Assembly (NCBI GenBank): GCA_030280995.1
Contig: JASXTE010000016.1
Location: 15,577,001-15,641,000, forward strand
Origin: Hemileia vastatrix
Taxonomy: Eukaryota; Basidiomycota; Pucciniomycetes; Pucciniales; Zaghouaniaceae
Reading direction: 5' to 3'
DNA: 64,000 bases
Made by a program: the position numbers and the translations under genes. Every line of letters starts with the position of its first letter. The stretch's first letter is position 1. Shown here piece by piece: positions 1,215 to 54,630 of the stretch. Below the pieces are notes generated by a model. The model was not told where the DNA came from and did no database searches. It saw only the letters and a program-made list of their open reading frames with translations.

Positions 1215-1705
1215 ACAACTTATTTCAGACCTGGTTCATTGTCCTCTTCAACATCTTCTTCTTCTCCACAACCTGATCCACCTTCCACCAGCACCAAAAT
1301 ATTCAGACCATCCATTCTGATCCCAAGACTAGTCAACAAGTTACACACTTCAAAAAAGAGTTCCAAACCCGCTACAAACACTAGCTCTTCCATCCTTGGT
1401 CCTTCTGATGGTAAGCTCAATACTTCTTCATACTGAAATTCAATCTGACAAATTTACAGTTCATTTCCATTCAGACAGTGATGATGACAATTTGGGAACT
1501 ATTAAAGAACCCCCACCTAATCCATTGCCCATCATCAAAGATAACTTCCAACAACATTCTTCTCAAAAGAAGCATCACATCCTATATTACTTTTAATCCA
1601 CTCCTTCTAGGAACCCACAGACCTTGAAAAAGGAAGAACCTCATCCACAAGTTCAAATCCAATGCTGAACATTTTGTTACATCTCTTGATTCTTTTCTAA
1701 ATACT
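1215..1705 (+). pseudogene. Antisense gene 1 of element A1 (5'-truncated)
   Basis: This is the homologue of the A2 gene at 42173-42813. It keeps the Ser/Thr/Pro-rich stretch with TSTK and RPSIL, and the block reading IKDNFQQHSSQKKH, which matches IKAKFQQHTSQQKQ in A2. The N-terminal cysteine cluster has been removed by the upstream LTR-like insertion, and the frame is broken at least twice. The strand is opposite to gag-pol of the same element. The function is not known; the A2 copy suggests a Zn2Cys6-type protein. Confidence 0.55.
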
Positions 1706-1770
1706 TCTTGCCTAAAAATTTTGATTTAAAAATAAAAAATAAAAAAATCCTTATTTTAATGTCTTGGGGG

Positions 1771-2176
1771 ACTAATCCTTAGTTTTAAGTCTTTGGGGAC
1801 TAACAGCCCTCATTTTATAGTCTTGGGGGACTCTAAAACCCTCAGTTTATTGTCATGGGGGACTCAAAACGTGAATCAAAAAGAGAGAACCAGAGATAAA
1901 AACATTAAGGACCAAAGAAACAAACTAACATTCTGGGGTAACTGTTCTACAGAGCAGCCAGCTCATCAGTTACCCCCACACTTGCCTTAGCAAAATTCAG
2001 AGACTCCCCCTTGGATTCCCTCTGCCAGAATCACACCAAATCCATATTATCAGTTTATAGTCCTGAAGGACTCAACCAACAACCATCCTTAGTTTATAGT
2101 CTTGGGGGACTGTAACATTTCTCAGTTTAATGTCTTGATGGACTGCCAGTGTTCAGTTTAAAGTCTTGATGAACTA
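1771..2176 (+). repeat. Hairpin-motif array (family 1), element A1
   Basis: There are about seven copies of a 20-22 base unit of the form CAGTTTA-N-AGTC-TTGGGG-GACT, for example near 1776, 1813, 1842, 2056, 2094, 2126 and 2156. The four bases on each side of the 6-base loop are complementary in most copies. The array lies between the two antisense genes, directly upstream of a TATA-like box. The same unit recurs in A2, in C and inside pol coding sequence. Confidence 0.8.
1935..1976. repeat. Family 2 hairpin (GGGGTAACTG/CAGTTACCCC)
   Basis: A perfect 10-bp stem encloses a loop with a second stem, GAGC-AGCCA-GCTC. It is one of seven copies of this structure in the window, all in the 3' region of elements A and C. 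Confidence 0.75.
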
Positions 2177-2195: not shown

Positions 2196-2327
2196 GGTGG
2201 AGCCACCTCCATGCACAGTGCTCCACAGCCAACCTGCTGAACTTCCACTCTTTCTTCATTATCTACACATCAATGACAAAATTTTCATTTATCTCTTTTC
2301 TCTTCATTATTTTTCCTTCACAGATAA

Positions 2328-3879
2328 TGGCTGAATCTCCAGACTTTGACCCATTGGACCTTCCCTGTTTCACTGCTCCAAAGGACTTTGCTTGTAAACA
2401 GTTCATCCACATGTGCAGGCCATGTACCTTCGCTCTTCCTACTCCTCAAGCTGAATTCTATAACAGAGCCTGTGATTCTTGCAACTCTAAAAATTAAAAG
2501 ATGTGACAGAGACCCCAACTATCCAATATCTCTGCCTTCACCTTCACACAAATATATTTCCAGATCTCCTACCAGGTCACCAGAGCTCGGGCCTTCTACT
2601 TCTTTATCTTTTGCTCCTTCCAGAAGATCACACCATTCTATTCCCAAAACACTCACTAAAAGACTTGCTTTATCTTCTCAAGAATCTGCTTTTATTTCAG
2701 CAAATTTGGCCAAATCAGCTTCAAAATCAGCTCCCAGGCTGCTAGACGGCATCCAGGCGGCCCTCCCGCCTTGCCAGAAAGCAAAAATCAGGCTCAAAAC
2801 TCCAAAATTCAGCCAGATAACAGCCAAAATACACCATTAAACACCAAAAACTCTACACAAACACCTCCTAGTGCTCCCAGAGAAATGGGTACACACCAAA
2901 TATTTTCCCCAGACAAACCCAAAAATTTCAACAACTCTAGAAAACCTGCCAGAGGACCTTCTGATAACACTAGAGCACGCAACACTGTTTCCAAACAAAA
3001 ATCTCCAGTTACTATAAGAAAAACTAACAACACCACTCCTCTGGCCGCCAATTATTCCTATGATGGTTCCCTTTCTTCTAGATCTTCATCTAGCAAATCA
3101 CAATCAGCTTCCAGGTCACCTTCTCCTGATCCTTCCTTCAACAACCCTGGTTCTCCACCACCAGTGTCCAACCCACCTGAGCCAAGAAATATTAATATCC
3201 ATAACAACAACAGCAGCCCTGATTCTCCAACCAAGCCACAGGAATGCCCTTCTTCTCCTTCATTGTCTCAACACCATTTAGAGAGTGATCATGAGAATCC
3301 ATACCACTATCTGATTGATCCTCCTTTAACATCCATTCATCTTTCTTCAACAGCTCAAATCCTGGCCGCTTACAAATTTGATGAGCTTCCAATATGTAAG
3401 TACCAAATTAATAAATCAATTTTCTTTAACAGAGAAAAATTACTGATCTCATTCTTCTGTGTAGTTGGAATCCCGCCTCCTAAAACTACAATTGGGATTG
3501 GCCAGCTTCTAGAAACTACCTTAAGGCTAGATTACACCAACATAAAACAACACCTAAGCATGATTTTTCAAAAATGCTTAAGGCCTTTGCCCTCCACGGT
3601 CCGTGGAATGAATTTGAAAAGAATCTGAGGAAAAAGCCCCTTGATGACCACTGGAAGATGTCTAGAATAATCAAGCACACCTTCCAACACTCAATCCCTG
3701 CTTCTTCCACTTCTTCCAAAAAATTACCTTCCACTCCGTCACCTGACCATTACAATCCATATACTCTTTCCAGCCCCCTACACCCCAAAAAACACAGTTC
3801 TTCTTCCAATTCTAACAAAAATCAAAAATGCCACCATAATCCAGACCAAAACACAGAGGCTTCTTCTTCCAGACATTAA
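2328..3879 (+). pseudogene. Antisense gene 2 of element A1 (Zn2Cys6-like, spliced, frameshifted)
   Basis: The start ATG at 2328 aligns with that of the A2 copy (43525). The N-terminus is cysteine-rich (ACKQFIHMCRPC, then ACDSC), but one cluster cysteine is Phe here. A 1-nt frameshift near 2495 follows, then a long Ser/Pro/Asn-rich region, including an open stretch from 2771 to the intron. A probable intron runs from GTAAGT at 3396 to TAG at 3464, and splicing gives a frame matching the A2 exon 2. A second frameshift near 3575 precedes the conserved domain beginning MLKAFALHGP and containing DHWKMSRIIKHT. It is opposite to gag-pol and lies between pol and the 3' LTR. Function is inferred only; a zinc-cluster DNA-binding protein is the best guess. 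Confidence 0.65.
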
Positions 3880-7361: not shown

Positions 7362-7383
7362 AAAAAAACAATAAAAAAAAATG

Positions 7384-25024: not shown

Positions 25025-25690
25025 AATAACCAGTTTAGAGTCTTAGTGGACAGTGATAAATTAAAAGATTGAATTGAGTTATCCAAACAAGATTGACATT
25101 CCAGTTTAAAGTCTTGGTGGACCAAACATATAATCGATTGCCAGTTTATGGTCTTGGTGGACCAAAGATCGTTTAAGTGCATAAATATCTTGATATATTC
25201 CTAAGTAAGGCCTAGGCTTGACCAAAGATTGAATAAATTTGATAATCCAGTTTAATGTCATAGTGGACCAAACATTTGATCGACAAGTAATCCAGTATAA
25301 GGCCATAGTGGTCCAATGAATGTTGAATTATCCTGCAGATATTAATTTTCCAGTTTAAAGTCATAGTGGACTAAACAATGAATGAACTACCAGTTTAAAG
25401 TCATGGTGGACCAAACATTTAATCCATAAGAAATCCAGTTTAAGGTCATGGTGGACCCAACAGCTTGATAACAGTCCAGTTTAAGGTCTTGGTGGACCTA
25501 ACATTTGATAACACTCCAGTTTAAGGTCTTGGTGGACAGCTCCGAAATTCGTATAAAACCCTTAAGGAAAGTCTTGAACAGTAGCCAGTTTAAAGTCTTG
25601 GAGGACTAACAGATCCAAAATACGTATAAAAAAACCTTAAAGAACTTCTTGAAAAGTAGCCAGTTTAAATTCTTGGAGGACTAACAGATA
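25025..25690. repeat. Hairpin-motif array (family 1), element C
   Basis: About 14 units of CCAGTTTA-N-GTC-TTGGTG-GAC are spaced by roughly 30-60 unrelated bases. The stems vary in a paired way: AGTC/GACT near 25353 and 25577, GGTC/GACC near 25142, 25434 and 25474. The spacers are not conserved, so this is not a simple tandem duplication. Confidence 0.82.
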
Positions 25691-33617: not shown

Positions 33618-33634
33618 CCCCACGTTGGGCGCCA
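33618..33634 (-). other. Primer-binding site of element C
   Basis: TGGCGCCCAACGTGGGG lies two bases inside the 5' LTR. It is complementary to the 3' end of tRNA-Lys(CUU), the primer type known from some retroviruses. Confidence 0.75.
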
Positions 33635-33636
33635 AC

Positions 33637-34732
33637 TATAGTAAGGTAAACTCTTACAGTCGCCTTGCTGTGAGCAGAATCCGGAGGAGATATGTGGATT
33701 TAGCTGAAAACCCCGTCCTTCCAATAAAAATAACAAAATGGGAATTCTAAATCACTAAGCTAACCAATCTACTTGGATCTGATTGATGAAAATAATGAAA
33801 CTCTAAAATATTTAACGCTTATTGAGATTAAAAGAAAGTGGCTGTTGAGAAAGAAATACTGATAACAACAATTAAGGTGTACCAGTGAATGATCTGTAAA
33901 GATTGACTTTTATGTTTTTATAATATTTTAAATTTATATGAGACAGCAATAATCAAGTCCCAGCGATGAAGACCTTTCTAAAGATACCCTGTATGAAGTG
34001 TGATTTAAATTGTTGAATTGTATTTCTAAGATGTTATGTAAAAAATAATAATGTTATAAGGGTATTACAAGTTATTTTAATTTGTTGAGTAATAAAAAAT
34101 GAGACTGTGGTGGTTAATGATTAAGCTGTATGATGTGTCCCCCCCTCAATTTCGAGTTTGAGAAGCGCTTAAGTATTCCTAGTCACGTGCCTAAGTTTTC
34201 CCCTCCAGAGCTCTTCCAGAGTCAATCCGGAGCCCGTACGGAGTCCGTACGGAGTCCGTCTGGACTTTCGAACTCAATTAGAACCTTAAAACTATAATAA
34301 AAAATCTAGAAACATTACACATAATAGAGGTACTTCCCCTTTACATACCAAACTAATTTTCGTAGTCTGCGCAGCTCTAATTACCCCGTGAAAATTCATC
34401 AAAGTTAAGTAATTTCTGAAAACGTAAATATTTCTATAAAACTTTGAAATTCATTTAAAAATATAAGAAAAATAGTAAAAATTCTGGGAAAATTTCCCAA
34501 GGTTCTTGAGTGACTCGACTTAATACTTATAAATTTTTCACCCGTAAAAATAAGTTTTCTCTGTAAAATAAATTGTTTTCGTGTAGGCATTCGCTCGTGA
34601 CCAATTTCTTCATATTTAAAACTCAAATAAATTAAATAAAACCCTTTTATAAAAAATAATAACGCCAATCTTGCACGCCGTAATAACTCCATTTACATAT
34701 TTAGGTGCCGTACTAAACTTTAGGCTACCACA
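33637..34732 (-). repeat. 5' LTR of element C
   Basis: This is the partner of 23265-24360 and has the same length. It starts TGTGGTAGCC on the minus strand at 34732. Confidence 0.92.
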
Positions 34733-34889
34733 CTGGGGCTATCCAATGGTAATACCCGAATCCGCGCAGTCCCAATACTTGTTGAATAATTCCAGAAAAA
34801 CACCCAATTATTAAACAATGCCATTTAAGACATATCAAAACAACACCAAACAGACCAACAAAGGGCTCTGCCAATGTTGGAAGACCACA
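34733..34889 (-). repeat. 5' LTR of element A1, outer part
   Basis: This completes the A LTR begun at 22318. It ends TTGGAAGACCACA, the same terminus as the A2 LTRs. Confidence 0.85.
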
Positions 34890-36384: not shown

Positions 36385-37634
36385 ATGAAGCAACTCTCTA
36401 CTAGCAAGAAGCTTCACACAGCTATAAATGCTATCACTTTAGTTTTAGCCGCTGACTCTGATTATGACTCTGGTTTGGAAGACACTTTATCTTATATGTC
36501 TTATCTTTCCAAAAAGTGTTACATCATACCAAGGAGGCCAAATCTTTATCATGATCCCAGATATGAACTCTGCTCCATTCTCAACATTCCTCAACTAAAC
36601 TTCAATTGATTATTTTGAACTTCTCCCAATTCTTTTTCCAAACTTTCTCAACTCATCTCCAATTACCAGATCTTCCATAATAATTCCCATAAAATCAGTG
36701 TGATCCTTCCTTTCAACTTTCTGTTGCACTATGTTGCTTTGGCTCAAATGGAAAAGGTGCTGCTGTAAGACGTTTAGATAATATCTTTACCATAGGAGAT
36801 GTTACTTTCATATTATACACCAAGTTCTGCATGATTGCTATCCTTTCTCTCAAGTCTCAAAAACTTGCTTGGCCAACTCCAGAAAAGCAACTTGAATCCT
36901 CTCAATTAATGCAAGCCAAAGGTCTTCCTGGATGTGTAGGTTTTGTTGATGGTACAACTATACCTTTGAGTCATAAGCCTGCTTATGATAGAAACCATTA
37001 TTTTGATTGCAAAAAAAGACTTCTTTGTAATATTCTCCAACTTCACATCTTTCATAAACTAACTTTTTATCATCTTTGTAGATACTCAATTTCCATTCAA
37101 CTTGTCTGTGACGTCAACAAAAAGTTTATTTCTTTTCATAGTGGCTCCCCCAGCTCATGTCATGACTCTTCCTTTTTCCAAAGAATGAGGATTTCTCAAA
37201 TTCCTGACTCATACTTTGACAAATCTCAGTACCTCCTTTCATACTCTGCATATGCAAGTGGAAAGTACATTATACCTGCTTTCCAAGTTGCAACCTTAGA
37301 AAATGACCCCTAAACCACCCCTTAATTATCACCTTGCCCAATCAAGAGTATGGATTGAACTTGCTATTGGGATTTTATAAGGAAGATTTTCTAGTCTCCA
37401 AGAACTCAGAATCCAATTTCAAAAAAAATGGAAATAAAAGCTGCAAATCATTGGATAATGACTTGTGTTATACTCCACAATATCCTAGCTGATTTAAAGA
37501 AGTGGAATGATCTTTATGAAGAAGAGGATCCTGAACCAGCACCGGCTCTCTCCTCCCTTGAATCACAAAACATTAATTCAACTGGAATAAGCTCTGTCAT
37601 TATTCCAATCACCCTCCACCATTTTGACACATAA
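36385..37634 (+). pseudogene. Harbinger DDE transposase, D1 (broken)
   Basis: This is the homologue of the D2 transposase. The start MKQLSTSKKLH aligns with the D2 start and is followed by an acidic stretch and YLSKKCYIIPRRP. Stops and frameshifts follow from 36608. The catalytic-core pieces are readable: GCVGFVDGTTIPLSHKPA (first Asp), GSPSSCHDSSFF (second Asp), and the region of the Glu around 37350 in a broken frame. An intron equivalent to that of D2 lies near 37020-37082. The C-terminus (MTCVILHNILADL to ITLHHFDT) is conserved. The copy is inactive. Confidence 0.82.
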
Positions 37635-38459
37635 CCCTTTTATTTTTTTGTTTTTATACTCACTAAATTTCTACTTTGTATACTCTATTCACTTGGCTTG
37701 GTATTTTTCTTTGTTTCATATTCATTTTTTTTGGAATTTACGGTGAATATCTATTTTTTGGATGGCTCATTGCTTTTCTTTCACCAGCTCAAAATGACAT
37801 CACATATTTTCTGAAATGGCATAATTTCTCACTTTTTTTATTCATCCATAATATCCTTTTCCTCTTCTCCTCCAACATCCCTCAAACAATTTAATTGCAT
37901 TTTTTTTCTCATCTCATCTCTCCAGGTAAGTCATTTTATTCTTTTTTATTGATTTTTTGATTACTAATTATAATTTTTTTTGTTTTTTTTCTATTATTTT
38001 TTATTTTTTATATGTAAATTTTTTTGTAAGTGGTTATTTTTTATTTCAATGGCAAAATTAACCTTTTTTTCTCTCCCTCTTTACTTACTTTTTTAGCTTT
38101 ATCACCCTACTCTTCATCCCTCCTTAGCATGGTCATTATCCCCCTTTCCCCTATTTCACTTTTTTTTGGCTGCATTTTATTAAAACACATACATTGCAAA
38201 TTTTTTATGCATTTCACTTACTCCATATTTAATTTCCCCACAATTTGAAGATCAATCTTTCTCACTCTATTTTTCCTACTTTTCAATCAAGGTAAGTTTC
38301 ATCTCATTTTTTTCATGCCTATATGATATTTCATTCCTTTTATGAAGATTTCATACTTAAATAGATGTATGAATCTTATCTGGATAACAGTTAACTTATT
38401 AAACTCCTTTTTTTCTCATCTTCATTACCATTTTTCAAGTTTTTGTAAAATTTTTAAAA

Positions 38460-41050: not shown

Positions 41051-42124
41051 TGTAGACAATCCTATAGTACTAGCTATAGGCCTTGACCAAGGGAGTTGGA
41101 GAAAAACCAGAGAGAAAATCCCCTGTCCCTTTAGAAAAATAGAGTGAGATTTACTTGCTAAAGTAAGTTGGTTCCTGTTTTGCTAAAGCTCCTGTTTAAC
41201 ACACTTGACTGCTTGATGAGCCAAGAAAGTAGTCCCCAGATAGACTACCAGACCAAAGAACTGAAATGTAGAACAAAGTCCACACCAGAGACAGCAAAGA
41301 TACTTGATGTAGGCTGCAAATCCACACCAGAGACAGCAATAATACTTGCTATAGCTTGCAAGACTATAACAGAGAAAACAGTTGCCAAAGTTAAGTTAAA
41401 TGAAGAACTCACTTGCAACAAACACAGCCAATTGTGGCCAGAAAACAGTGAAAACTGAGTGAGGAACAATGATATCACCTCCGGATGGTTGTATGATGAT
41501 TAAGGTTGCCCCAAACTGTCTTATTCACTATGTACACACAGACCACTAACTAAGAGCCCATGCGCACCCACCAATCTGGCGCCTGTACCTGCCAAATTGC
41601 ATAAAAAACCCTACTGAAGCACTCCCCAACCTCCTAAAACAGAGGCGGGCGGGCGGCCCGACGTCGGAGATGCCGCCTGAAGCCAGAAAACCAATAAAAA
41701 CCACTAATCTACTTAGAAAAATCAGCTACAACTACTAAAACCTTTAAAACACGGAATTTCACTATAACAACATTGTGACATGAAATATAGAGAAAAATTA
41801 GCTCTATCCAATGGTACTAAGCACTTAACCCTAAGACTTAAGGTTAGCCCGTAAAACACGAAAAACAAAATTAAAAAGCAATCTGTTATAAACGAAAAAT
41901 GAGGAAATGACCCCTTAAAACTCAGAATATAAAAAATGTCTACAAGACATAAAAGATAGAGAAAAACCAGGGCTATCCAATGATAGTACCCACATACCCG
42001 CAGACCCAATATCCACGGAATAAAACCAGAGAAATACCCAATTCCTTAACAGATGTCAATTAAGACATGCACAAACAGCATCAAATCCCACAACAAAGGC
42101 CCCTGCCAATGTTGGAAGACCACA
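41051..42124 (-). repeat. 3' LTR of element A2
   Basis: On the plus strand it begins TGTAGACAATCC and ends GAAGACCACA. It has two tandem CCACACCAGAGACAGCAA units (41278-41350) and a GC-rich palindromic block with GACGTC (41640-41685). Confidence 0.92.
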
Positions 42125-42172: not shown

Positions 42173-42813
42173 ATGTTTAACCTTCTTCCCAAATCTGCCT
42201 CTGAAATGGGTCCCTGCCAATACTGCATTGACAATAATTTAATCTGCACCATGACACCACCTGTCCATCCATACAGAACATCCTACGATGTCTGCCAATC
42301 TAGAAAGAAGACCTGCCACAGACCTGGTCCACTTTCTTCTGCAACAGATTCACCTCCACCTCAACCTGGTCCTTCTTCTACCAGCACCAAAAGATCTAGG
42401 CCATCCATCCTGATACGCATATTAATCAAATAGCTCCACCCTTCCCAGAAGAGTGCCACAACCCATAAAACAACTAGTTCCACCATCCCTGGTCCATCTG
42501 ATGGTAAAGAACATTCATTTCTTCCTTCAACTTTAAAACTGATGACTTCTCAGTTCCTCCATCTTCTGATAGTGATGATAACAATGTAGGATCCATTGCA
42601 CCACCAACACCAATGCACTTGCCCACTATCAAGGCCAAGTTCCAACAACACACATCTCAACAGAAACAACTTCTGCTTCACTACTTCCAATCCACTCCTG
42701 CTAGAGATCCACAGGACATTGAGAAAAGAAGACACCTCATTCACCAGTTCAAGGCTAATTCTGAACACTTCATTTCATCTCTTGATTCCCTCTGTATTTC
42801 CACTAGTACTTGA
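42173..42813 (+). pseudogene. Antisense gene 1 of element A2 (Zn2Cys6-like)
   Basis: Antisense to gag-pol, starting about 50 bases inside the 3' LTR boundary. The N-terminus has GPCQYCIDNNLICTM (C-X2-C-X6-C), twelve residues, then YDVCQSRKKTCHRPG. This is the second half of a C-X2-C-X6-C cluster with the first Cys replaced by Tyr (TAC, one transition from TGC). Pro/Ser-rich sequence and a C-terminal stretch (IKAKFQQHTSQQKQ to HLIHQFKANSEHF) follow. A stop near 42433 and a frame change separate the parts. The basic residues after the second cluster half fit a fungal Zn2Cys6 DNA-binding domain. Its role in the element is unknown. Confidence 0.6.
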
Positions 42814-42861
42814 GTTTGATTCAGAAAAGAAAATTTGACCACACCCTCTATAGGATGTAAC

Positions 42862-43375
42862 CAAAAACAACCCTCAGTTTTAAGTCTTGGGGGACCATCC
42901 TCATTTTATAGTCTTGGGGGACTCAAAAACCCTCAGTTTAAAGTCTTGGGGGACTCAAAAACCCAAATCATAAACTCAGAACCAGAGATCAACCACATTA
43001 AGACAAAGAGAAAAAATTAACATTCTGGGGTAATTTTAAATAGAGCTGCCAGCCCATCAATTACCCCCAAACTTTCCTTTTCTAAATTCAGAGGCTCCCC
43101 CTGTGGATACCCTCCACCAATATTTCAAAACCAATTCCAACAATAAAAACTTTTCCCTCAGTTTATAGTCTTGGGGGACTTACAACCCTCAGTTTAAAGT
43201 CTTGTGGGACTAAAACAGTGTTCAGTTTAAAGTCTTGATGGACTATCTTGATAAAATCTTGAAAACAGCCAGTTTAAAGTCTTGGAGGACTAACAGAAAC
43301 CAGATTTCAGTTTAAAGTCTTGATGGACTGATCTTGATACCATAAATTTTTCAGTTTAAAGTCTTGATGGACTGA
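42862..43375 (+). repeat. Hairpin-motif array (family 1), element A2
   Basis: About nine units of CAGTTTAAAGTCTTGGGGGA type lie at roughly 42870, 42900, 42935, 43158, 43190, 43222, 43268, 43308 and 43350, with one family 2 hairpin (43027-43067) among them. The array lies between antisense genes 1 and 2, as in A1. Confidence 0.8.
43027..43067. repeat. Family 2 hairpin
   Basis: GGGGTAATT pairs with AATTACCCC and has the AGAGCTGCCAGCCC loop. It carries the same stem variant as the copy in C. Confidence 0.7.
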
Positions 43376-43524
43376 CGGAATTTTGCATAAAATAGACGCA
43401 GCCAATTTCATGCGGAACACCTCTACAGCCAACCTGCTGAACTTCCACCTTCACTTCATCATCTACCCATCACTGACAAAAATCTCCTCCTATCCCTTTT
43501 CATCATCTTTTCTCACCACAGATC

Positions 43525-45084
43525 ATGGCTGGATCTCCTGATGTTAACCCTTCTACTCACCCTTGCTTCACTGCTCCCAAGGACTATGCCTGCAAACAGT
43601 GCATCCACATGTGCAGACGTTGCACATTCACTCTTCCAACTCCTGAAGCCAAATTCTACAACATGGCTTGTGATTCTTGCTATTCCAAAAAGAAAAGATG
43701 TGACAGAGATGCCAACTACCCTATTCCTCCTCCTTCACCTTCTCATAAATACATCTCCAGATCCCCTACCAGATCCCCAGAGCTTGGTCCTTCCTCTTCC
43801 TGTTTATCTTCAGCACCTTCCAGAAGATCCAGAAGCTCCGCTTCCAGAACTCTTCCTAAAAGACCAGCCTTAGCTTCCCAAGAAACTGCTTTTATCTCCA
43901 CTAAATTAGCTCCAAAAGCTTCAAGATCAACTCCCAGGCTTCTAGACCGCGTCCAGGCGGCCCGGCCGACGTCGGGCGGCCTGCCCGCCTCACCAAAAAG
44001 TGAAAATCAGGGCCAAAACCTCCAAAAACAGCCAAATTCATCCAGAGAACAACAACAACTCAACCCAACCACCTCCTACTACTCCCAGAGCAATTCAATC
44101 AATTCTTCCAAGGTCCAAAAGCACCAAAACTTCCCAGATTTCTAAGAGACCTGCCAGAGAACCCCAAGAAGAAACCAGAACACCACACACTGTACCCCAA
44201 GAACAACTTTGTCCCCAACTAAGACAAAGAAACTACACCTCTCCTCTGTCAGCCAACTAATCTTCTGACAGCTCCATCTCTTCAAAAGCTCAATCCAGAA
44301 GAAATCAATCTGCTTCCAAATCCCCCTCTCCTGCTCCATCCTTTAACAACCCTGGTACTCCATCACCAGAAACTCCTCCAGCTGAATCCAACAGAAATAA
44401 GAACCACAACAACAGCAACAATCCCACTGCTCCAACTAAGCCCCAGGAACATCAGCCTCCTAGTTCACCTTCTCAAAATATTTCAGAGGAAGAGCATGAG
44501 AATCCATATCTTTCCCTGGTTGATCCACCCACTATGACCATTACAAAATTGTCAGAGATCCAAATTCCAGCTTCTTACAAATTTGATGAGCTTCCAATCT
44601 TTAAGTACCAAATTAATTATCCCCTTTCTTCAACAAAAATAATTACTGATCCAATTCTTCTTGTCTAGTTGGAACCCCTCCTCCAAAATCTATTATTGGA
44701 GTTTGCCAACCTCTTGAAACTTCTTTGAGCCTGGATTATGGAGACATGAAGAAACACCTAAGCACCATGTGTTCCAACATGCTAAAAGCCTTTGCCCTCC
44801 ATGGACCTTTGAATGACTTTGAAAAATCCCTGAGAAAGCGCCTGTTGGACAACCACTGGAAAATGTCTAGGATCATTAAGCACACCCTCCAGCACTCCAT
44901 TCCTGCCTTTTCTTCTTCCTCCTCTGAACTTCCCTCTAATCAAATTCCTGACCATTACAATCCCTATCATCTCTCCAGCAGAATGCACTTCAAGGAACAC
45001 AGTGCTTCCCACAATCCCAACAAAAAACAAAAACGTCATCACAATCCGGACCAGCCTCCAGAAGCTTCATCATCCAGAAAATGA
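43525..45084 (+). pseudogene. Antisense gene 2 of element A2 (Zn2Cys6-like, spliced)
   Basis: The ATG at 43525 follows a CATAAAATA box (about 43386). Cysteines at residues 23, 26, 33, 49, 52 and 59 give C-X2-C-X6-C-X15-C-X2-C-X6-C, the fungal Zn2Cys6 pattern with a linker longer than usual. ACDSCYSKKKRCDRD closely resembles the basic half of that domain. An SR/SP-rich middle region (SRSPTRSPELGPS) follows, with a frameshift near 44130 and a stop near 44259. The intron acceptor TCTAG ends at 44668; the donor seen in A1 as GTAAGT is TTAAGT here. Exon 2 (44669-45084) encodes a conserved domain, MLKAFALHGPLNDFEK to HWKMSRIIKHTLQHSIPA, shared with A1. It is probably a transcription-factor-like accessory protein; the function is not demonstrated. 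Confidence 0.68.
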
Positions 45085-45261
45085 GCTCCTGCAAAAGATT
45101 AGAAACATAATAATAATATAAAACAAATAATAAAAATAATTTCAGAATTTTTTTTTTTTTTTTTACCAATATACTAAAATAAAAAATTAATAAATAAAAT
45201 GAAATGAAATAACATAAATGAAATAAAATAAAATATAAAAGATAATACAAATGGTATCCCC

Positions 45262-45279
45262 CAGCCAATTGATGAGCTG
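45262..45279. repeat. Hairpin with loop CAATTGATGA
   Basis: Stem CAGC/GCTG. An outer GGTATC/GATACC pair of arms (45254-45292 region) encloses it. Confidence 0.6.
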
Positions 45280-45678
45280 ATCCCCTGATACCTTACCCAC
45301 ATCCAAGTGCACCTTGATGTGGATACACAATTAATTCTTTTAAATGGTTAACAGAAAACAAAATTCAAAAAATTTAGAAATTCAGAAGATAATAAAAATA
45401 ATGAAACACAGAAACACATGAAATAAATAATAAATAAAAAAGAAAATAGTATTTCCCGGCCAATTGATGAGCCTTTCCCCACCAATGCTTGCTCACATCC
45501 AGGTGACCCTGATGTGGTAACACCCTATATTTTTGATTTTATAATTTTAAACAACCCCCATAAAAAAATTTAAAGAAAATAATCTAAAACTGCTATCTAG
45601 AAAAAAACATAACTGCAAAATCAAAGACAGTCCAGCTCCATAGATGGTCCAATAAGGGAAAGTCCGATCCATAGAAAT

Positions 45679-45734
45679 GATCACTGGGTGGGCTCCCTCC
45701 AATAAGTAAAAATGATGGGAGACCACCAGTGATC
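45679..45734. repeat. Long hairpin GATCACTGG...CCAGTGATC
   Basis: Same structure as 4571-4625, with about 17 pairs, one bulged G and one mismatch. Confidence 0.75.
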
Positions 45735-45872
45735 CACCACCAATCTGAAAGAACCAAAGATAAAGAAGCCAGTCTCAAACCAGTTTAAAGTCAAAGTGGA
45801 CTTGAAACCTGAATAATAAACAACAGAACTAGAATTCAACTAGGAAAAACAAAGATTTGAAACAGACATTCT

Positions 45873-45914
45873 GGGGTAACTGTTCTACAGAGCAGCCAGC
45901 TCATCAGTTACCCC
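45873..45914. repeat. Family 2 hairpin
   Basis: A perfect GGGGTAACTG/CAGTTACCCC stem. The inner stem is GAGC-AGCCA-GCTC. Confidence 0.75.
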
Positions 45915-46134
45915 CACACTTGCCAAAATAAAATCTAGAAGCCCCCCCTGGGTACCTTCTAACAAAAATACAACATCCAACACAAAAAAACCCAAACCAA
46001 TAAACAGTGAAGAGTCCAGCACATGAAAACCAAAGGAAATTCCAGTTTAAAGTCATAGAGGACTAAAACCTGTAAAAAGAAACCAATACTAGGGTTCAAC
46101 CAAATTAAGAGAAAGGGTTGGAAACAGACAATCT

Positions 46135-46175
46135 GGGGTAACTGTTGATAGGGCAGCCAGCCCATCAGTCACCCC
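46135..46175. repeat. Family 2 hairpin
   Basis: The outer stem has one mismatch. The inner stem is GGGC-AGCCA-GCCC, a paired change from GAGC/GCTC in other copies. Confidence 0.7.
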
Positions 46176-46311
46176 CACACTTGCCAAGAAAAAATCTAGA
46201 GGCCCCACCCATGGGTACCCTCTAACAAAAGTTTCCAACAATCAGATGCATAGCATCACCACAAAAAAACCAATATTAAAGAATGGTCCGTAGTTTATCC
46301 TCATTGCAGAG

Positions 46312-49184
46312 TCAATCTTCTTCATGCCTAGTGCCTCTGGGATAAAACCTCTTCACTTGGTCTGCAGCCACCCTATTTTTCAAGACTGCACCATCCAACT
46401 CTTCCAAAACATAAGAACCTCCAGACGCCTGAGATCTGACTCTGTAAGGTCCATTCCATCTGTCAGCAAACATTTTCCCCACTGACTCTCCAAACTTCTA
46501 TTATACACCAAAACCAAACAACCAGGTTTAAAGGGATTCCTGAGTCTATGAGCCAACTTCTTGTCCCAGTACCTGACTGATTGATTCCTAATCTTCATCA
46601 TTCTAGAGTATGCCTTCTCTTGACATTCCTCTCTACATTCCAACTGTTGCATCCTGGCACAGAGCAAATCTTCTGTTGAGTGCACATCATCCCAATCAAT
46701 TCCAAGATAAGAGACAGCTTCCAAGTCCACTGGTAGAACGGCTTTCTGACCAAACATTAACTCATAAGGATAATAGCCAGTTGTCCTCTTCACAGTGACC
46801 CTATCAGCAAATAACACCAAGGGTAAATAATGCCTCCACTTTTCAGCACTATCTCCACACATCTTCACTAAAGCATTCTTGATAACTTGATGGCCTCTTT
46901 CAACCATGCCTTCAGCTTCAGGATAATAAGGTGTAGCCACTCTAACTTCAGAACCAACACTAGCCACAGCTTTTTTAAATTTGGCACCAAACTCTGGCTC
47001 ACCATCAACAGTGACCAACTTCATCACCCCATACCTATAAATCCACTCCTTCTTCAAAAAATCTGCCACATTCTTGGAAGTCAAATTAACCAGAGGCACT
47101 GCCTCAACCCAACCAGACAAATCATCCCTAGCAACAATCAAGTATTTATACCTGCCCTCTTTAATATGGACAGCATCCATACTGACCCTTCCAAAAACAG
47201 TTGATTCACCAGTAGCACGGCCAACCTCTTTAGGTTTCAAGTGAATTCTTCTTTGACATTCTTCACAAGATTGAACCCAACCCTGCACAGCCAACTTTAT
47301 ACCTGGCCACCAAAATCTGTCTGCTACTCTTCTATAATTCTCCCCAAAGCCTCTATGACCAAGGTCTTCATGCAAAGACTTCAACACAAGTTCTTGACCC
47401 TTCTTCTGAGTCACCACCACTTGAGGATTAGGATGCCTTCTCCTCATCAACCTTCTTCCTGACACATAAAATCCAGGACTCTTCTTCTTGATTGCTAACC
47501 AAGTATCATCATCACAACTATCTGGCCTCTCCAAGGTCAACAGATGTTCCACCACAATAAAATAAAACCCAGACTGACCCCAGGTCTCATCTTCAAAATC
47601 CAACAACACCACATACAAGGGTACAATTCTTTCATCAAAATCACCAGTATGAACATGAGCCAATTGAGCAGCCCAACCAGGACACCAATTCTTAAATTTT
47701 GGCACGTCCTTCTCTTTCCACTGAACCTTGTGAGAATCCAGTTCACTAACAAAAACACCCTTTTCCAATTTTGAGCTGTCCCAAACAACAACTCCATCTT
47801 CATCAAAAAAAACATCCTGATCACCAGAATCAAGATCAGCTCCAGCCCGTTTAGCCTCTTGGGGGAGGTCAGAAAAATATTCAGCACCCTTTGTGCTGGC
47901 CCTAACCACTGGAAAATCTTTATCAAACTCTTCAGCCTCAGAATCTTCATCTGTAGGTGGCCTCCTTGATAATCCATCAGGCATAGTAAAAGTTTTACCT
48001 GGTTTGTGTACCAGGTCAAAAGAAAATTTTTTAATAAATGCCACCCGCCTAGTCATTGGAGCATTTGGAAGACTAGGTGTATTGATCATCTGAACCAAAG
48101 ATTTTGCATCCACCTACAGCTCAAAATGCTGCCCCCACAAAACCGTCTGCAGCTTCTTTAAAATTTTAGCTACACCACACAATTCCAACTTAGGCTGAGA
48201 ATACCTAGATTCCACCTCATTAAACACCACAGACTCATATCTTACTGGCCTGACCCTCCCATTCTTATCCTCCTGAGAAAAACAGCACAAGCAGCAATAT
48301 AACTTGAGTCCACTTCCAGATGAATTTTTCCAGCACCAACACCATAATCCAACTTGTGAAGAACAATATCCTCACCAACAACCTTTTTCAACTTCTGAAA
48401 AGCCTCTTCACACTCTTCAGTCAATTCCCAATTTGCATCTTTTCTGGTCAACCTCCTTAAAGGTGAATCCAACAAAGAAAAATCCTTAATAAAAATCCTG
48501 ACATATACACATACACCCCAAAATCCCCTGAGTCAGTAGTATTTTTAGGCCTTGGCCATGACTGGATTTTATTAATCTTCTTCTTTGCCATAATCCTTGC
48601 CTCTTTACATACCACATGACCCAGAATTTCCAAAGCAGGAACACAACAACAGAATTTTGACCCTGAAATGGTCAAACCAGCCTCTTCAATCCTAAACAAC
48701 ACTCTCTCTAGAGTTATTGCATATTTCCACACAAACCTCCTTATTCCAGGGTTCTTTGCTAACACCTCATCACCATAATCAGTGGATGGTCCTTTAATTC
48801 CAACATCATCAATAAAAATACCAGCATGAGTCAGAACCTCATCCTGTAAAATCCAAGCCATTTGAGCTTGATATACTGCTAATGAAATAGTTGCTCCTTG
48901 ATGCAACCTAGTAAGCTTAAATCTTCCCAAAGGAGTCTCAATCATTGTGAGTGTCCATGAATCATTGTGAAGTTCCCTTTCATCATAACCGCCCATAATA
49001 TCTCCCAAACCATAACACACCCTTCCAGCAAAAGCTTCAACAAAATCCTCTGCACTTGGTGGCATCCCAGCGTCCTTGATAGTGACTCTATTCAAGGCTC
49101 TAAGATCATGAAACACCCGCAACTTTCCATTATGCTTCTTTACACAGAAAACCGGACTTGAGTAGCTGGAAGTTGATTGTTCAT
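46312..49184 (-). pseudogene. Pol of element A2, RT-RNase H-integrase part
   Basis: RT is readable from about 49145 (VFHDLRALNRVTIKDAG, LGDIMGGYDE, FIDDVGIKG), with a frameshift near 48520. RNase H (VDSSYIAACAVF) breaks near 48275. A TAG at 48114-48116 (HFEL-stop-VDAKSL) probably derives from CAG. Integrase is then open to near 46460, with LHEDLGHRG, CEECQR, SMDAVH, VTVDGEPEFG (catalytic Asp kept, following Gly changed to Glu) and EGMVERGHQ. It ends at TGA 46312-46314. An in-frame LPQEAKR unit lies near 47850. A solo A LTR splits it upstream. Confidence 0.86.
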
Positions 49185-50247
49185 TGTAGACAATCCTATA
49201 GTACTAGCTATAGGCCTTGACCAAGGGAGTTGGATAAAAACCAGAGAGAAAATCCCCTGTCCCTTTAGAAAAATAGAGTGAGATTTACTTGCTAAAGTAA
49301 GTTGGTTCCTGTTTTGCTAAAGCCCCTTTTTAACACACTTGACTGCTTGATGAGCCAAGAAAGTAGTCCCCAGATAGACTACCAGACCAAAGAACTGAAA
49401 TGTAGAACAAAGTCTACACCAGAGACAGCAAAGATACTTGATGTAGGCTGCAAATCCACACCAGAGACAGCAATAATATTTGCTATAGCTTGCAAGACTA
49501 TAACAGAGAAAACAGTTGCCAAAGTTAAGTTAAATGAAGAACTCACTTGCAACAAACACAGCAGATTGTGTCCAGAAAACAGTGAAAACTGAGTGAGGAA
49601 CAATGAGATCACCTCCTGATGGTTGTATGATGATTAAGGTTGCCCCAAACTGTCTTATTCACTATGTACACACAGACCACTAACTAAGAGCCCATGCGCA
49701 CCCACCAATCTGGTGCCTGTATGCATAAAAAACCCTCCTGGAGCGCTCCCCAACCTCCTATAACAGAGGCAGACGGGCCGCCTGAAGCGGCCCGGCCTCC
49801 CTGAAGCCAGAAAACCAATAAAAACCACTAATCTACTTAAAAAAATCAGCTACAACTACTAAAACCTTTAAAACACGGAATTTCACTATAACAACATTGT
49901 GACATGAAATATAGAGAAAAATTAGCTCTATCCAATGGTACTAAGCACTTAACACTAAGACATAAGGTTAGCCCGTAAAACACGAAAAACAAAATTAAAA
50001 ATCAATCTTTTATAAATGAAAAATGAGGAAATGACCCCTTAAAACTCAGAATATGAAAAATGTCTTCAGGGCATAAAATATAGAGAAAAACCAGGGCTAT
50101 CCAATGATAGTACCCACATACCCGCAGACCCAATATCCACGGAATAAACCAGAAAAATACCAAATTCCTTAACAGATGTCAATTAAGACATGCACAAACA
50201 GCGCCAAATCACACAACAAAGGCCCCTGCCAATGTTGGAAGACCACA
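49185..50247 (-). mobile_element. Solo LTR of family A inside A2 pol
   Basis: A full A LTR with both termini (TGTAGACAATCC to GAAGACCACA) and no internal sequence, presumably left by LTR recombination. It interrupts the RT N-terminus, with flanks TCAT (49181-49184) and TCGT (50248-50251). The intact sequence is seen in A1 near 18550. It contains the palindrome GGGCCGC-CTGAA-GCGGCCC (about 49771-49789). Confidence 0.88.
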
Positions 50248-51566
50248 TCGTATAACCCAGTCCTGAATCTTTCCCTAACAATCTCTACAAAATCCTCTCT
50301 AATAGTGGCTGGAATCGGAATAGGTTTGATTTGCCAAGGTTCATGACAAACCACAGGAATCAAGTAAGGCTCCCCACAAGAGTGCTTCAATACACCCCTT
50401 TCCTCCTCAAAAAACGCCACAGCTTTTTCCCTTAGCACAATAACGTGCAACAACAACTTCTTTTCTTCTTCAGACAACCACCCATAAGGACCAAAATTAA
50501 CAACTTTCAACCTTTGGAAAGTCACCCTAGCCGTCTCTACAAATTCTGGAGGATTCTTCACCAAAGGAGTACAGTACGGATTTCTTGACAAAGGAGGTCT
50601 CTTCAAGGACGGATTCAAACCCATAGGCATAGGCTCATTGACAGGCCTAATCTTCTGCACTACCTTCTTATACTTTGCCGCTCCACCTTCAACTTGAGGG
50701 ATCTTCAGGAAATCTTCAGCACCAGACCTGGAACAAAAACCAAGGGTTTCCCCATTGCTCAAATGTGTGGCCAAGGTAATATTTTTGAAAGGTGTAGAAG
50801 AAACCCTAGTGGTGCACAATTGGGAGGACTTACTTTTACACCCCAATCTCACCACTCCAAAACTTTTCCGCAATTCCACATCTTCATCCTCACTTCCAAC
50901 TTCCAATTCTTCAAATCTTGATTCATCTTCTGAATCACATCTTCTAAAATTATGCAGTTTATCCTCATGCTGGAGGCCCAAAAATTGATCTTGATGATCT
51001 TCTCTCTTCATAATTTTCTGCAGTTTAACCTCATGCTGGAGGCCCAAAAATAGATCTTGACGATCTTCACAAAAATATTTTGCATCTTCTTTCTTCATTA
51101 TTTTCAGATTTTTTTCTTGATTTTCATGAATTAATTTGAAATTTTTATCTTATTTTCTTGAGTTTTCTTCCATCCTACAAAAATAACCTGGGGTTTCCCC
51201 AATGCTCACAGAATGGGCCAAGGTAATGTTTTTGAAAGGCGTAGAAGAAATCCAAGTGGTGCACAATTGGGAGGACTTACTTTTAGACCCCAATCTCACT
51301 GCTCCAAAACTTTTCTGCATATCTTTTAATAAAGATATATAACCAATCTTCTTCCTTGAACTTTAATTAAAAATAATTAAGAATCTTGAGAGAGAACAGA
51401 GACTTGATAAAAAACTTGATGAATACTTGCAGAGAAGACAAAAATTAAAAAGAGAAAGTTGAAAATCCACTTGGTATATCTCCAAGGGAGCTGACCTACT
51501 ATAACCTGGGATTTCCTCATCTTGGGGAGAGGTTGCATCACTAGGGTGATCAGCCCTTATTACTCT
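50248..51566 (-). pseudogene. Pol of element A2, N-terminal part
   Basis: From the gag-pol junction the -1 frame is open and reads to SPQDEEIPGYSRSAPLEIYQ, matching C. After breaks near 51360, the frame from 51098 carries LQHEVKL and LQHEDKL units, then the linker preceding RT (VNEPMPMGLNPSLKRPPLSR). RT begins just before the LTR insertion at 50248. Confidence 0.8.
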
Positions 51567-52218: not shown

Positions 52219-53062
52219 TCTCTGTCAGTCGTCTAGAAGAGATAAGAGAAGAGGGAAGAAAAGAGAGGAGGACAAGAAGGAAATAGTAATTTAGAAATAA
52301 AAGAAATAAAAACAAATGAAATTATTTAATTTATTTGAGAGAAAGCAACGACGAGTGATTTGAGAGGTGACACCAAATTGGTTTTATTAATATTAATATT
52401 ATTTAAGTAAGAGTTCTGCGGGGCAAACACTATGATTACTATCAGACTTAAGGCAACCTTTAAATTGTTATTTAGAATTTTTAATTAGAATTTAATACTA
52501 ATAAAAATAATAATAAGCGTAATAAAATTATCTTTAAATTGTTGAGTGTGTAATAAGTGATGAGGCTACAGGGGATTATCCAAGGCCCTTTTATAGGCAA
52601 TGGGTCCTCTGAAGCGCCACTATATTTGTAAATAGAATAACTATAATAGGATAAAACAAGTATTTCAAAGAGTAAGTGAAACATAACAATGTAGAGAAAA
52701 ATATGAAACAAATAATTAAAATCCCAATTAAGAATCCAATTTTCCCGCCATTAATTCCCAAATCAGTAAGTAAAAATAGTGAATAACTAAACAAGCCTGG
52801 AACATAGAACCTATGAGAAAAATCATTCAAAACAGATAGTACAGTCTGATTTAAGGATTTTTAAGTGAAACAAAAATATTCTGACGCAACAAATATGTAA
52901 TTTATTTCAATTCAGTATTAATTAATTTTTTCTGACACAATTATAGGTCAAAAGAAGCGTCATTATTTATTGTTTAATATTATAAAAAATGATATTTAAT
53001 ATATAAATAAAATTAATTAATTTAATTATATTATAAGTAAATTTTACACTTATAATTATAAT

Positions 53063-53094
53063 AGGGGGTGTCAGTTCTGGCAAATCCGCACTTA
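53063..53094 (+). repeat. Left terminal inverted repeat of D2
   Basis: AGGGGGTGTCAGTTCTGGCA continues to CCGCACTTA. It matches the complement of 60499-60530. Further AAATCCGCACTT copies follow at about 53097, 53115 and 53209. Confidence 0.9.
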
Positions 53095-53370
53095 CAAATC
53101 CGCACTTAAATTTGACCAAATCCGCACTTAAATAAGTGCGGATTTCCAAAACACACTAGCCCCAATACTGGTGGATTTCAAAATGAAATAAGTCACTTAT
53201 TTCACTCAAATCCGCACTTTCTCAACCAAAAGTGCTGATTTCACCATCAAGTCCCATTTCACTGATTTGTCAGCATCATCCCATTCATACGCAGCACTCC
53301 GCAGCATAACACTTCATAACTCAAAACATCGTACATCACTTACATCTTAATATCATATCATATAAGAGTC

Positions 53371-54630
53371 ATGCCTTCCTCACTTTCAAATCATGATAAA
53401 TTACATAAAGCAATGACTTTCATGGCGCTTGAACTGCTCTTGGACTCTGATTCCGATTCTGATCTAGAAGAAGATTTTGTCGTTTTATCAAAAATGGCCA
53501 GGAAACGTTACCTTCTTCCCAGAAAGCCTCAAGTACTTCATACCCCCAAGTACACCATCCAAACACTTCTTAACCTATCTACACCCAGTTTTAGACAGCT
53601 GTTCAGGACTTCTCAGGAATGTTACCTTAAATTGCTTGAGCTTATTCAGGATCATCCCATATTTCACAATAATTCTCAAAAAGAACAATGACATCCTTCA
53701 ATTCAATTGGCCATCACACTATGTCGTTTGGGTTCAAATGGTAATGGAGCCGCTTTGAAACGTTTAGAAAATGTCTTTGATTTAGGGTATGGTTCAGTTA
53801 ACACTTATACCAAACGATGTATCACTGCCATCAACTCCTTGGAATCTCAACTTCTCACCTGGCCAACAAAAGAAGAGCGACTTGAATCATCTCAGGTTAT
53901 GCAAGCAGAGGGCTTTCCAGGATGTATTGGTTTTGTTGATGGTACTACTATTCCTTTGAGCCAGAAACCTGCTCAAGGTGGAAACAATTACTTTGACCGT
54001 AAAAAGAGGTAGATTATTTTTAACTCCTTTCATCCTCCTTGAAACTAACACAAACAAATATATCTTCTTTATAGATATTCAATTAACGTTCAGCTTATAT
54101 GTGACGTAAACAAAAAATTTATATCATTCTTCGCTGGCTATCCTGGCTCATGTCATGACTCCTATGTCTTCCAAAGAATGCATATTTCAAATGAACCTGA
54201 AAAATTCTTTGATGAAAATCAGTATCTTCTTGCAGATTCTGCTTATGTGAATGGAAAGTATGTACTTCCTGCTTTTCGGGGAGCAGCTTCAGAAGACAGT
54301 CAAAATGCCAAATTCAACAATCATTTGGCAAAGTCAAGAGTCCGTATTGAACATTCTATTGGAATCTTGAAAGGCCGTTTTTCTAGTTTAAGGGAATTAA
54401 GAAGTCCTCTTAGAAATAAATCTGAAATGGAGGCGGTGATCAACTGGATTCTGTGTTGCACTATACTTCATAACCTACTTGCTGACCTCAAAGATCAATG
54501 GTTAGAGCTGTATGAAGATGAACAAGTTGATTCACCTCCGACTATATCCAACACTTCTATTTCTCAATCAACTAGTATAAGGGCGAAAATCCTTCCAATA
54601 ACACTCCAACATTTTTCAACGCAATTTTAA
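53371..54630 (+). pseudogene. Harbinger DDE transposase of D2 (one in-frame TGA)
   Basis: Exon 1 is 53371-54008 and exon 2 is 54075-54630, joined across a 66-base GTAGAT...TATAG intron that restores RKKRYSINVQ. The result is 397 codons with a single TGA at 53689-53691, probably from CGA. The N-terminal acidic and helical region is followed by GFVDGTTIPLSQKPA (Asp about 190), GSCHDSYVFQRM (Asp about 241) and RVRIEHSIGILKGRF (Glu about 305), the catalytic triad of the PIF/Harbinger DDE family. The C-terminus is CTILHNLLADL. Apart from the TGA the gene looks functional. D1 carries a more decayed relative. Confidence 0.88.

What the first reader, a model, noticed from the sequence alone, without database searches (positions are those of the whole stretch)
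42173..45084. Two Zn2Cys6-type genes antisense to gag-pol in the A-family Ty3/gypsy elements
Between pol and the 3' LTR, on the opposite strand, gene 2 has C-X2-C-X6-C-X15-C-X2-C-X6-C, the fungal zinc-cluster pattern, with ACDSCYSKKKRCDRD. Gene 1 has the same layout with one Cys changed to Tyr. Gene 2 is shared by two diverged copies (A1 and A2), including an intron and a C-terminal domain (HWKMSRIIKHT). Antisense accessory genes exist in some plant elements and deltaretroviruses. I know of no Zn2Cys6 example in a fungal retrotransposon.
Basis: partly seen in the sequence, partly recalled or inferred. Interest (0 to 1): 0.88.

Follow-up and report, generated by a model that had tools for sequence, protein, structure and literature searches.

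The report
Antisense zinc-cluster genes in a rust retrotransposon
Two decayed copies of a jumping element, likely from a rust fungus, carry on the strand opposite to their core genes a pair of genes whose changes between copies show selection for protein, most clearly in the second gene, and which are predicted to make zinc-holding proteins that likely bind a repeated DNA motif lying between them.

Summary
Between pol and the 3' LTR of a Ty3/gypsy element (A1), two genes lie antisense to gag-pol; a second copy (A2) has them at the same place. Gene 2 evolves as protein: dN/dS 0.16 (0.10-0.24) over 272 codons, no stops in those pieces, against 0.26-0.30 for pol. Gene 1's second exon gives 0.23. 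Both have predicted introns, which the antisense position would let survive retrotransposition. All four gene copies are broken, and A3, the youngest of the three elements, has neither gene. The six-Cys pattern is real, but its halves appear in reverse Zn2Cys6 order and Pfam stays below cut-off: Zn2Cys6-like, not a proven member. New here: four-fold sites of gene 2 differ three times as often as those of pol and gag (48/89 against 56/314, p 1e-10), so the antisense block likely has an older history; and 31 copies of a 21-base motif, readable as inverted GTC-N6-GAC half-sites, lie around the genes and, alone, in A3. Likely a self-encoded regulator with its own operator array (inferred, untested). 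Antisense accessory genes are known in Retand, Grande and Boty.

The parts
41051..42124 (-). 3' LTR of A1 (TGTAGAC...GACCACA on the plus strand), polypurine-like tract just inside; gene 1's first ATG lies 49 bases further in
   Evidence: (against the 5' LTR 62631-63683, 48 of 1054 sites differ)
42173..42503 (+). gene 1 exon 1 in A1; alternative ATG 42206; Cys/Tyr cluster 42215-42316; in-frame TAG at 42431
   Evidence: dN/dS of the aligned part 42320-42500 is 0.43 (0.20-1.05)
42504..42553 (+). gene 1 intron (predicted), 50 bases; A2 1411-1459, 49 bases
   Evidence: GT...AG in both copies; exon 2 frame agrees with splicing
42554..42813 (+). gene 1 exon 2 (charged C-terminal part)
   Evidence: dN/dS 0.23 (0.11-0.41) for 83 codons, 1 stop in A2
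42875..43372 (+). array of 9 copies of CAGTTTAAAGTCTTGGNGGAC between gene 1 and gene 2
43386..43395 (+). TATA-like CATAAAATAG (A2: CATATAAGGG) 13 bases after the last array copy
   Evidence: sequence only
43525..43950 (+). gene 2 N-terminal part from ATG; six-Cys cluster 43591-43701, then Ser/Pro/basic linker
   Evidence: dN/dS 0.10 (55 codons) and 0.22 (81 codons), no stops
44060..44600 (+). gene 2 middle part, low complexity, other raw frame; A1 stop at 44258
   Evidence: dN/dS 0.63 (0.42-0.93) for 180 codons
44601..44668 (+). gene 2 intron (predicted), 68 bases; donor lost in A1
44669..45084 (+). gene 2 exon 2, C-terminal domain with HWKMSRIIKHT
   Evidence: dN/dS 0.25 (32 codons) and 0.11 (104 codons), no stops
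1226..1725 (+). A2 gene 1, 5' part missing, intron 1411-1459 (predicted)
1752..2174 (+). A2 array, 7 copies
2327..3879 (+). A2 gene 2 with predicted intron 3396-3464; broken by frameshifts and a lost Cys
25031..25681 (+). A3 array, 11 copies, without either gene
   Evidence: none of 5 gene pieces matches inside A3 at E 1 or less
45177..46370 (-). conserved non-coding hairpin block between the antisense genes and pol
   Evidence: 208 of 1136 sites differ from A2

Best explanation
A Ty3/gypsy element carries, antisense to gag-pol, a pair of genes with predicted introns whose sequence changes show selection for protein, and these proteins would likely act in the nucleus as zinc-cluster regulators that bind a repeated 21-base motif beside the genes. 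Shown: the antisense genes, codon-level selection (strong for gene 2, weaker for gene 1), splice-like introns, the six-Cys pattern, the motif array, and much higher silent divergence of gene 2 than of gag and pol. Follows from the life cycle of LTR elements: introns in antisense genes are not spliced out of the genomic RNA, so they can persist through retrotransposition. Inferred: zinc binding, dimerisation, the reading of the motif as inverted GTC-N6-GAC half-sites, binding of the array (which ends 13 bases before a TATA-like box of gene 2, so gene 2 may control itself), an older history of the antisense block, and a use to the element such as control of its own transcription. A3, with the array and no gene, would be a cis-only user or would have lost the genes.
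For: Codon-level selection on the plus strand: gene 2 pooled 272 codons dN/dS 0.16 (0.10-0.24), 0 stops in either copy in those pieces; pol 0.30 and 0.26, where 4 of 539 and 2 of 239 codons are stops in A2 and were skipped. Positions 1/2/3 differ at 51, 38 and 120 of 272, chi-square p 5e-17, while the spacer shows no phase effect, p 0.92. Spacer control: dN/dS 0.74-1.23 over all six frames. The minus frames that share the signal contain stops in both copies. Gene 1 exon 2: 0.23. Cys pattern in 2 of 631 ORFs; the two clusters align at 34-38% identity, E 0.013-0.067. Half-motifs: gene 2's second half matches Zn_clus positions 2-16 (E 8e-4), gene 1's first half positions 16-34 (E 0.006). Array: 32 sites, all plus strand, chance 0.02; in 31 of them GTC and GAC are kept in 30-31 of 31 at distance 6, while four of the six places between are at 0.52-0.77.
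Against: No transcript, zinc or binding data. All four gene copies are broken: A1 gene 1 has a stop; A1 gene 2 has a stop, a lost splice donor and a frame break; A2 gene 1 is truncated with a stop and small deletions; A2 gene 2 has frameshifts and Cys2 replaced by Phe. Gene 1 lacks one Cys. Pfam stays below cut-off; the other half of each cluster (gene 2 first, gene 1 second) and the A2 piece match Zn_clus not at all. A3, the youngest, has no such genes. Only two copies were compared. Gene 1 exon 1 (0.43, 0.20-1.05) does not exclude neutrality; the middle of gene 2 is weak (0.63, 0.42-0.93). The dyad reading is my choice: the motif's left arm CAGTTTA is about as conserved (0.90-1.00) as GTC and GAC, sites were picked by likeness to the whole motif, and outside the arrays GTC-N6-GAC (7 sites) is no commoner than other spacings (2-9). 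No relative of gene 2 in two protein searches. Structure models are poor (mean pLDDT 54.6 and 58.7), and the cluster model matches no solved structure at E 0.001.
Confidence: 0.45

Rival explanations
1. Antisense accessory proteins with another nuclear task (import of the pre-integration complex, RNA export, particle function), the array being an unrelated RNA or packaging feature.
For: Plant antisense ORFs are discussed in these terms, with nuclear localisation for Grande (PMC7264820). The array lies next to conserved hairpins, and single motif copies precede hairpin units at 45781, 46043, 4675 and 26332. A3 has the array without the genes. Outside the arrays the GTC-N6-GAC core is not in excess.
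Against: GTC and GAC are kept at fixed distance while four of six places between vary. A Cys cluster with a basic half points to DNA binding.
Confidence: 0.3
2. Host genes captured by the element; the selection seen was on the host gene before capture, not in the element.
For: Introns are typical of host genes. Silent divergence of gene 2 is about three times that of gag-pol. All copies here are broken and A3 lacks them.
Against: Both copies hold the same pair in the same order, with the same array between, between the same LTR side and hairpin block, so two separate captures are unlikely. A single capture followed by neutral life in the element would not give dN/dS 0.16 at such divergence.
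Confidence: 0.13
3. The antisense transcript matters as RNA (dsRNA or silencing), the frames being incidental.
For: Proposed for antisense transcripts of other elements (PMC7264820).
Against: Codon-phase constraint and no stops in 272 codons of both copies.
Confidence: 0.04
4. Real antisense proteins, but the Cys pattern is not a zinc cluster.
For: Cys2 is Phe in A2, Cys4 is Tyr in gene 1, Pfam is below cut-off and two of four half-motifs match nothing of the family.
Against: Gene 1 keeps five of six places; A2 keeps four, with the sixth beyond its frame break; only 2 of 631 ORFs match the pattern, and they are these two.
Confidence: 0.08

Closest known systems
Plant Retand / Grande / RIRE2 antisense ORFs (aORF-3R)
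   Same: [quoted passage not shown] in Retand also tandem-repeat arrays in that space in about half of the clusters, and a domain predicted to bind DNA (PMC11963269 abstract and passages; PMC7264820 sections).
   Different: Plant elements; TRP28 (PF04195) domain, which none of 7 antisense-gene pieces matches at E 1 or less. 'zinc' and 'intron' occur 0 times in the main text of the Retand paper.
Boty antisense gene brtn (Botrytis)
   Same: Fungal element with an antisense gene between pol and 3' LTR (named in PMC7264820; passage and reference in PMC8365987, where brtn belongs to BcGypsy1).
   Different: One gene named; sequence not at hand, so no comparison made. The original paper was not read.
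HTLV-1 HBZ (deltaretrovirus antisense gene)
   Same: Antisense nuclear regulator made from the 3' end of a retroelement. HBZ itself is recalled; antisense genes and an antisense 3' LTR promoter of HTLV are named in PMC11963269 and PMC7264820.
   Different: HBZ is a bZIP protein (recalled); here a Cys cluster, two genes, and for gene 2 a TATA-like box of its own.
Fungal Zn2Cys6 transcription factors (Gal4 type, PF00172)
   Same: Six Cys in two C-X2-C-X6-C halves; basic ACDSCYSKKKRCDRD half; sites with inverted trinucleotides at fixed spacing (site type recalled).
   Different: Halves apparently in reverse order, linker 15 (12 in gene 1), below the Pfam cut-off, supposed half-site GTC rather than CGG (CGG recalled).

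Membership tests
Ty3/gypsy LTR retrotransposon (carrier) | protease-RT-RNase H-integrase order between LTRs | tested here: met
   A3: aspartyl protease in the upstream frame, RVT_1 (42.3 bits, cut-off 29.6), then RT_RNaseH, Integrase_H2C2, rve (30.5, cut-off 32.6). A1: RVT_1 33.5, Integrase_H2C2 56.2, rve 36.2. LTR pairs. The A1 gag frame 61604-62596 matches no Pfam family at 0.01.
Ty3/gypsy LTR retrotransposon (carrier) | primer binding site and polypurine tract | tested here: inconclusive
   TGGCGCC site beside the 5' LTR and a purine tract beside the 3' LTR seen by eye in A1 and A3; not matched to a tRNA.
Zn2Cys6 (PF00172) | Pfam gathering score 21 bits | tested here: not met
   19.9 (gene 2 second half), 17.1 (gene 1 first half), 16.4 (80-residue gene 2 piece), 15.0 (gene 1); no match for gene 2 first half, gene 1 second half and the A2 piece.
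Zn2Cys6 (PF00172) | six Cys, C-X2-C-X6-C-X5-12-C-X2-C-X6-9-C (spacing recalled) | tested here: not met
   Halves fit; linker is 15 in gene 2 of A1; gene 1 has Tyr at Cys4; A2 has Phe at Cys2.
Zn2Cys6 (PF00172) | basic half first | tested here: not met
   Basic half comes second; gene 2's second half matches the profile's start and gene 1's first half the profile's end.
Zn2Cys6 (PF00172) | two zinc ions bound, DNA binding | not testable with these tools
   No biochemistry; model too poor.
[quoted passage not shown]
   A1 and A2; dN/dS 0.16 for gene 2. A3 lacks it.
Retand TRP28 (PF04195) | TRP28 domain in the antisense ORF | tested here: not met
   No match at E 1 or less for 7 antisense-gene pieces.
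Boty brtn | sequence homology to brtn | not tested
   brtn sequence not available here.

The most novel reading that the evidence does not exclude
A retrotransposon that encodes its own pair of zinc-cluster transcription regulators on the opposite strand, together with their operator array, as a cassette that is passed between element lineages by recombination, while gene-less relatives such as A3 keep only the operators and use the regulators of others.
Probability: 0.25. Interest if true: 0.85.

Novelty: new variant of a known kind. Interest (0 to 1): 0.62.

Why it matters
The review read here (PMC7264820) says that the roles of antisense accessory genes of LTR elements are undetermined. A pair with a recognisable Cys cluster, strong protein-level selection on gene 2 and an adjacent motif array makes one function (a self-encoded transcription regulator with its own operators) directly testable. 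The unequal silent divergence suggests that such antisense blocks can pass between element lineages.

Tried and rejected
Host genome: the genome search was asked ten times and never answered, so further copies could not be counted. Protein relatives of gene 2: none at E 1 or less (exon 1 piece, 282 candidates by words, longer reading, 4408 candidates); the length limits exclude full-length relatives. Pol of A3 has 598 relatives; of the 120 listed, 12 bear an organism name, 7 of them rust fungi (Puccinia, Austropuccinia), the others Phenoliferia, Tilletia (2), Rhodonia and a bacterial MAG: this is how the host order was guessed. IMG/VR scans with pol and with the gene 2 C-terminal domain: no relatives. 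Motif scan of IMG/VR: 3 single matches, about what I roughly estimate by chance; not followed. Genome contigs: one distant pol relative at 35% identity (L001), not used. Phage records: no match to pol. Rfam: one weak miRNA match over the array, 26.5 bits against a cut-off of 57.3, taken as chance. Structure models too poor to use. Idea that gene 2's frame break at 43950-44060 is an intron: by eye no GT...AG shared by both copies; left open. Idea that the minus strand codes there: stops in both copies.

The mosaic reading rests on 4-fold sites (48/89 against 45/248 in pol and 11/66 in gag) and on windowed divergence: 0.19-0.38 up to 45199, then mostly 0.04-0.23, but with one window of 0.37 (84 aligned sites) at 45320. 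Against it: the gene 2 intron differs at only 11 of 67 sites and the spacer at 108 of 434, less than the third positions (120 of 272), although gene 1's intron differs at 23 of 49.

Full report
What was checked. The window holds three related Ty3/gypsy elements with gag-pol on the minus strand. A1 runs from its 3' LTR at 41051-42124 to its 5' LTR at 62631-63683 and is interrupted by a lone LTR (49185-50248) and a large insert (about 52219-60809). A2 runs from about 1226 into an LTR at 22318, interrupted at 5386-15817. A3 (about 23263-34735) sits inside A2's 5' LTR, whose remainder resumes at about 34736. LTR pairs differ at 48 of 1054 sites in A1 and 12 of 1096 in A3. Pfam finds protease, RT, RNase H and integrase domains in A3 and RT and integrase domains in A1. 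Pol of A3 has 598 relatives; of the 120 listed, 12 bear an organism name and 7 of these are rusts (Puccinia coronata, P. striiformis, Austropuccinia psidii). The host is therefore likely a rust; its species is unknown.

The antisense genes. On the plus strand, between the 3' LTR and pol, A1 holds gene 1 (42173-42813) and gene 2 (43525-45084); A2 holds the same pair in the same order, gene 1 lacking its 5' part. Each gene has a predicted phase-1 intron. Gene 1: 42504-42553 in A1 and 1411-1459 in A2, both GT...AG. Gene 2: 3396-3464 in A2 with GTAAGT...TAG; 44601-44668 in A1 with the donor lost. In both genes the intron lengths differ by one base between copies while the downstream frame stays coding, as splicing would require. 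Because the genomic RNA is read from the other strand, such introns would not be removed in the retrotransposition cycle.

Selection. I compared A1 with A2 codon by codon. Gene 2 N-terminal piece: dN/dS 0.10 (55 codons); next piece 0.22 (81); C-terminal pieces 0.25 (32) and 0.11 (104); pooled 272 codons 0.16 (bootstrap 0.10-0.24), no stop in either copy. The low-complexity middle, left out of the pool, gives 0.63 (0.42-0.93, 180 codons, one stop in A1). Gene 1 exon 2 gives 0.23 (0.11-0.41, one stop in A2); the aligned part of exon 1 gives 0.43 (0.20-1.05, one stop in A1), not distinct from 1. Pol gives 0.30 and 0.26 (4 of 539 and 2 of 239 codons are stops in A2 and were skipped). The spacer gives 0.74-1.23 over six frames. 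Third positions of gene 2 differ at 120 of 272 against 51 and 38 for first and second (chi-square p 5e-17, spacer p 0.92). The minus frames that share the signal contain stops in both copies. So the antisense strand was coding and was kept as protein for much of the time since the two copies' genes parted.

An older block. At four-fold sites gene 2 differs at 48 of 89, pol at 45 of 248, gag at 11 of 66 (gene 2 against pol plus gag, Fisher p 1e-10). LTRs differ at 13-14% and the hairpin block next to pol at 18%. Windowed divergence is 0.19-0.38 up to 45199 and mostly 0.04-0.23 after it, with one window of 0.37 at 45320. The simplest reading is that the antisense block of A1 and A2 parted long before their gag, pol and LTRs, that is, recombination between element lineages. 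Against it, the gene 2 intron differs at only 11 of 67 sites and the spacer at 108 of 434; gene 1's intron differs at 23 of 49.

The Cys cluster. Gene 2 of A1 has two C-X2-C-X6-C halves 15 residues apart; gene 1 has them 12 apart with Tyr at the fourth place. Only these 2 of 631 ORFs match such a pattern, and 0 in 40 random windows. Searched as pieces, the second half of gene 2 matches Zn_clus positions 2-16 (E 8e-4) and the first half of gene 1 matches positions 16-34 (E 0.006), which suggests halves in the reverse of the Gal4 order; the other half of each gene and the A2 piece match nothing of the family. No piece reaches the Pfam cut-off. A2's cluster has lost a Cys and its frame. I therefore call it Zn2Cys6-like, with reversed halves, and do not file it as a member.

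The array. CAGTTTAAAGTCTTGGKGGAC occurs 32 times within 3 mismatches, all on the plus strand, chance 0.02. One (17184, in A2 pol) was dropped. The other 31 lie in the pol-3'LTR space: 11 in A1, 8 in A2, 12 in A3. GTC and GAC are kept in 30-31 of 31 at a fixed distance of 6, while four of the six places between vary (0.52-0.77). Two cautions: the sites were chosen by likeness to the whole motif, and its left arm CAGTTTA is about as conserved (0.90-1.00), so the dyad is a reading, not a result. GTC-N6-GAC occurs 37 times, 30 inside arrays; the 7 outside are no more than for other spacings (2-9), although 5 of the 7 are two sites repeated in LTR copies. In A1 and A2 the array ends 13 bases before a TATA-like box and 153 bases before the gene 2 ATG. 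Zn2Cys6 dimers are known to bind inverted trinucleotides at fixed spacing (recalled), which is why I take the array as the likely target; nothing here shows binding.

What is against it. All four gene copies are broken, and A3, the youngest of the three, has the array but no trace of the genes: none of 5 gene pieces matches inside A3 at E 1 or less. Since the genes flank the array in A1 and A2, A3 needs two losses or A1/A2 two gains. Gene 2's frame does not run through 43950-44060 in either copy, so its unity as one gene is inferred. Structure models were poor. The host genome could not be searched.

Known relatives. [quoted passage not shown] PMC11963269, abstract and passages; PMC8365987, passages). 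Retand also combines antisense genes of predicted DNA-binding kind with repeat arrays, so the overall design is a known kind. The listings of my nine paper searches (titles and abstract starts, most lists capped) showed no paper on a zinc-cluster gene in a retrotransposon; the library lacks most subscription journals. Verdict: real, selected antisense genes, a new variant of a known kind; the regulator-operator mechanism is the best guess and untested.

Noticed in passing
43020-43115, 45860-45945, 46120-46212, 1925-2015, 4756-4840, 5010-5100, 26408-26495: A hairpin GGGGTAACTG...CAGTTACCCC recurs 7 times across the three elements; one pair changes on both sides (C-G to U-A in 2 of 7), one from A-U to G-U (2 of 7), and three of the 14 predicted pairs are broken in 1-2 copies.
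   Followed up: partly
45240-45530, 4155-4405, 25990-26080: A second recurrent hairpin, CCACATCAAGGTGCACTTGGATGTGG on the minus strand, 5 copies, two of 16 predicted pairs with changes on both sides in 2 of 5 copies and three pairs broken in 1-2 copies. A third inverted repeat, CACTGGTGG...CCACCCAGTG (45665-45750, 4560-4640, 26130-26210), is kept in all three elements (not folded).
   Followed up: partly
42055, 50178, 63614 and 23882, 34254: Each of the three A1-type LTR copies and each A3 LTR holds one GTC-N6-GAC core with a dyad extended by further bases (ATGTC/GACAT in A1-type, AGTC/GACT in A3); by number not above chance.
   Followed up: partly
53659-54793, 56953-58197: The large insert in A1 holds a DDE transposase frame (DDE_Tnp_4, E 4.5e-26), related to one at 36670-37811, and a TET-like 2OG-Fe(II) oxygenase frame (PF20515, E 1.5e-30).
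   Followed up: partly
6212-15375: A different LTR element (LTRs 6212-7349 and 14237-15375, 98.7% alike) with a 1739-aa frame and a chromodomain at its end (PF00385), no antisense genes noticed, lying inside A2.
   Followed up: no
29100-29102: A3, with 98.9% identical LTRs, has one in-frame TAG between its RT and RNase H/integrase frames.
   Followed up: no
43960-43995, 41640-41680, 210-290: GC-rich patches with GGCGGCC or similar words recur in the 3' LTR and inside gene 2 of A1 and near the window start, in an otherwise AT-rich window (36% GC); origin unknown.
   Followed up: no
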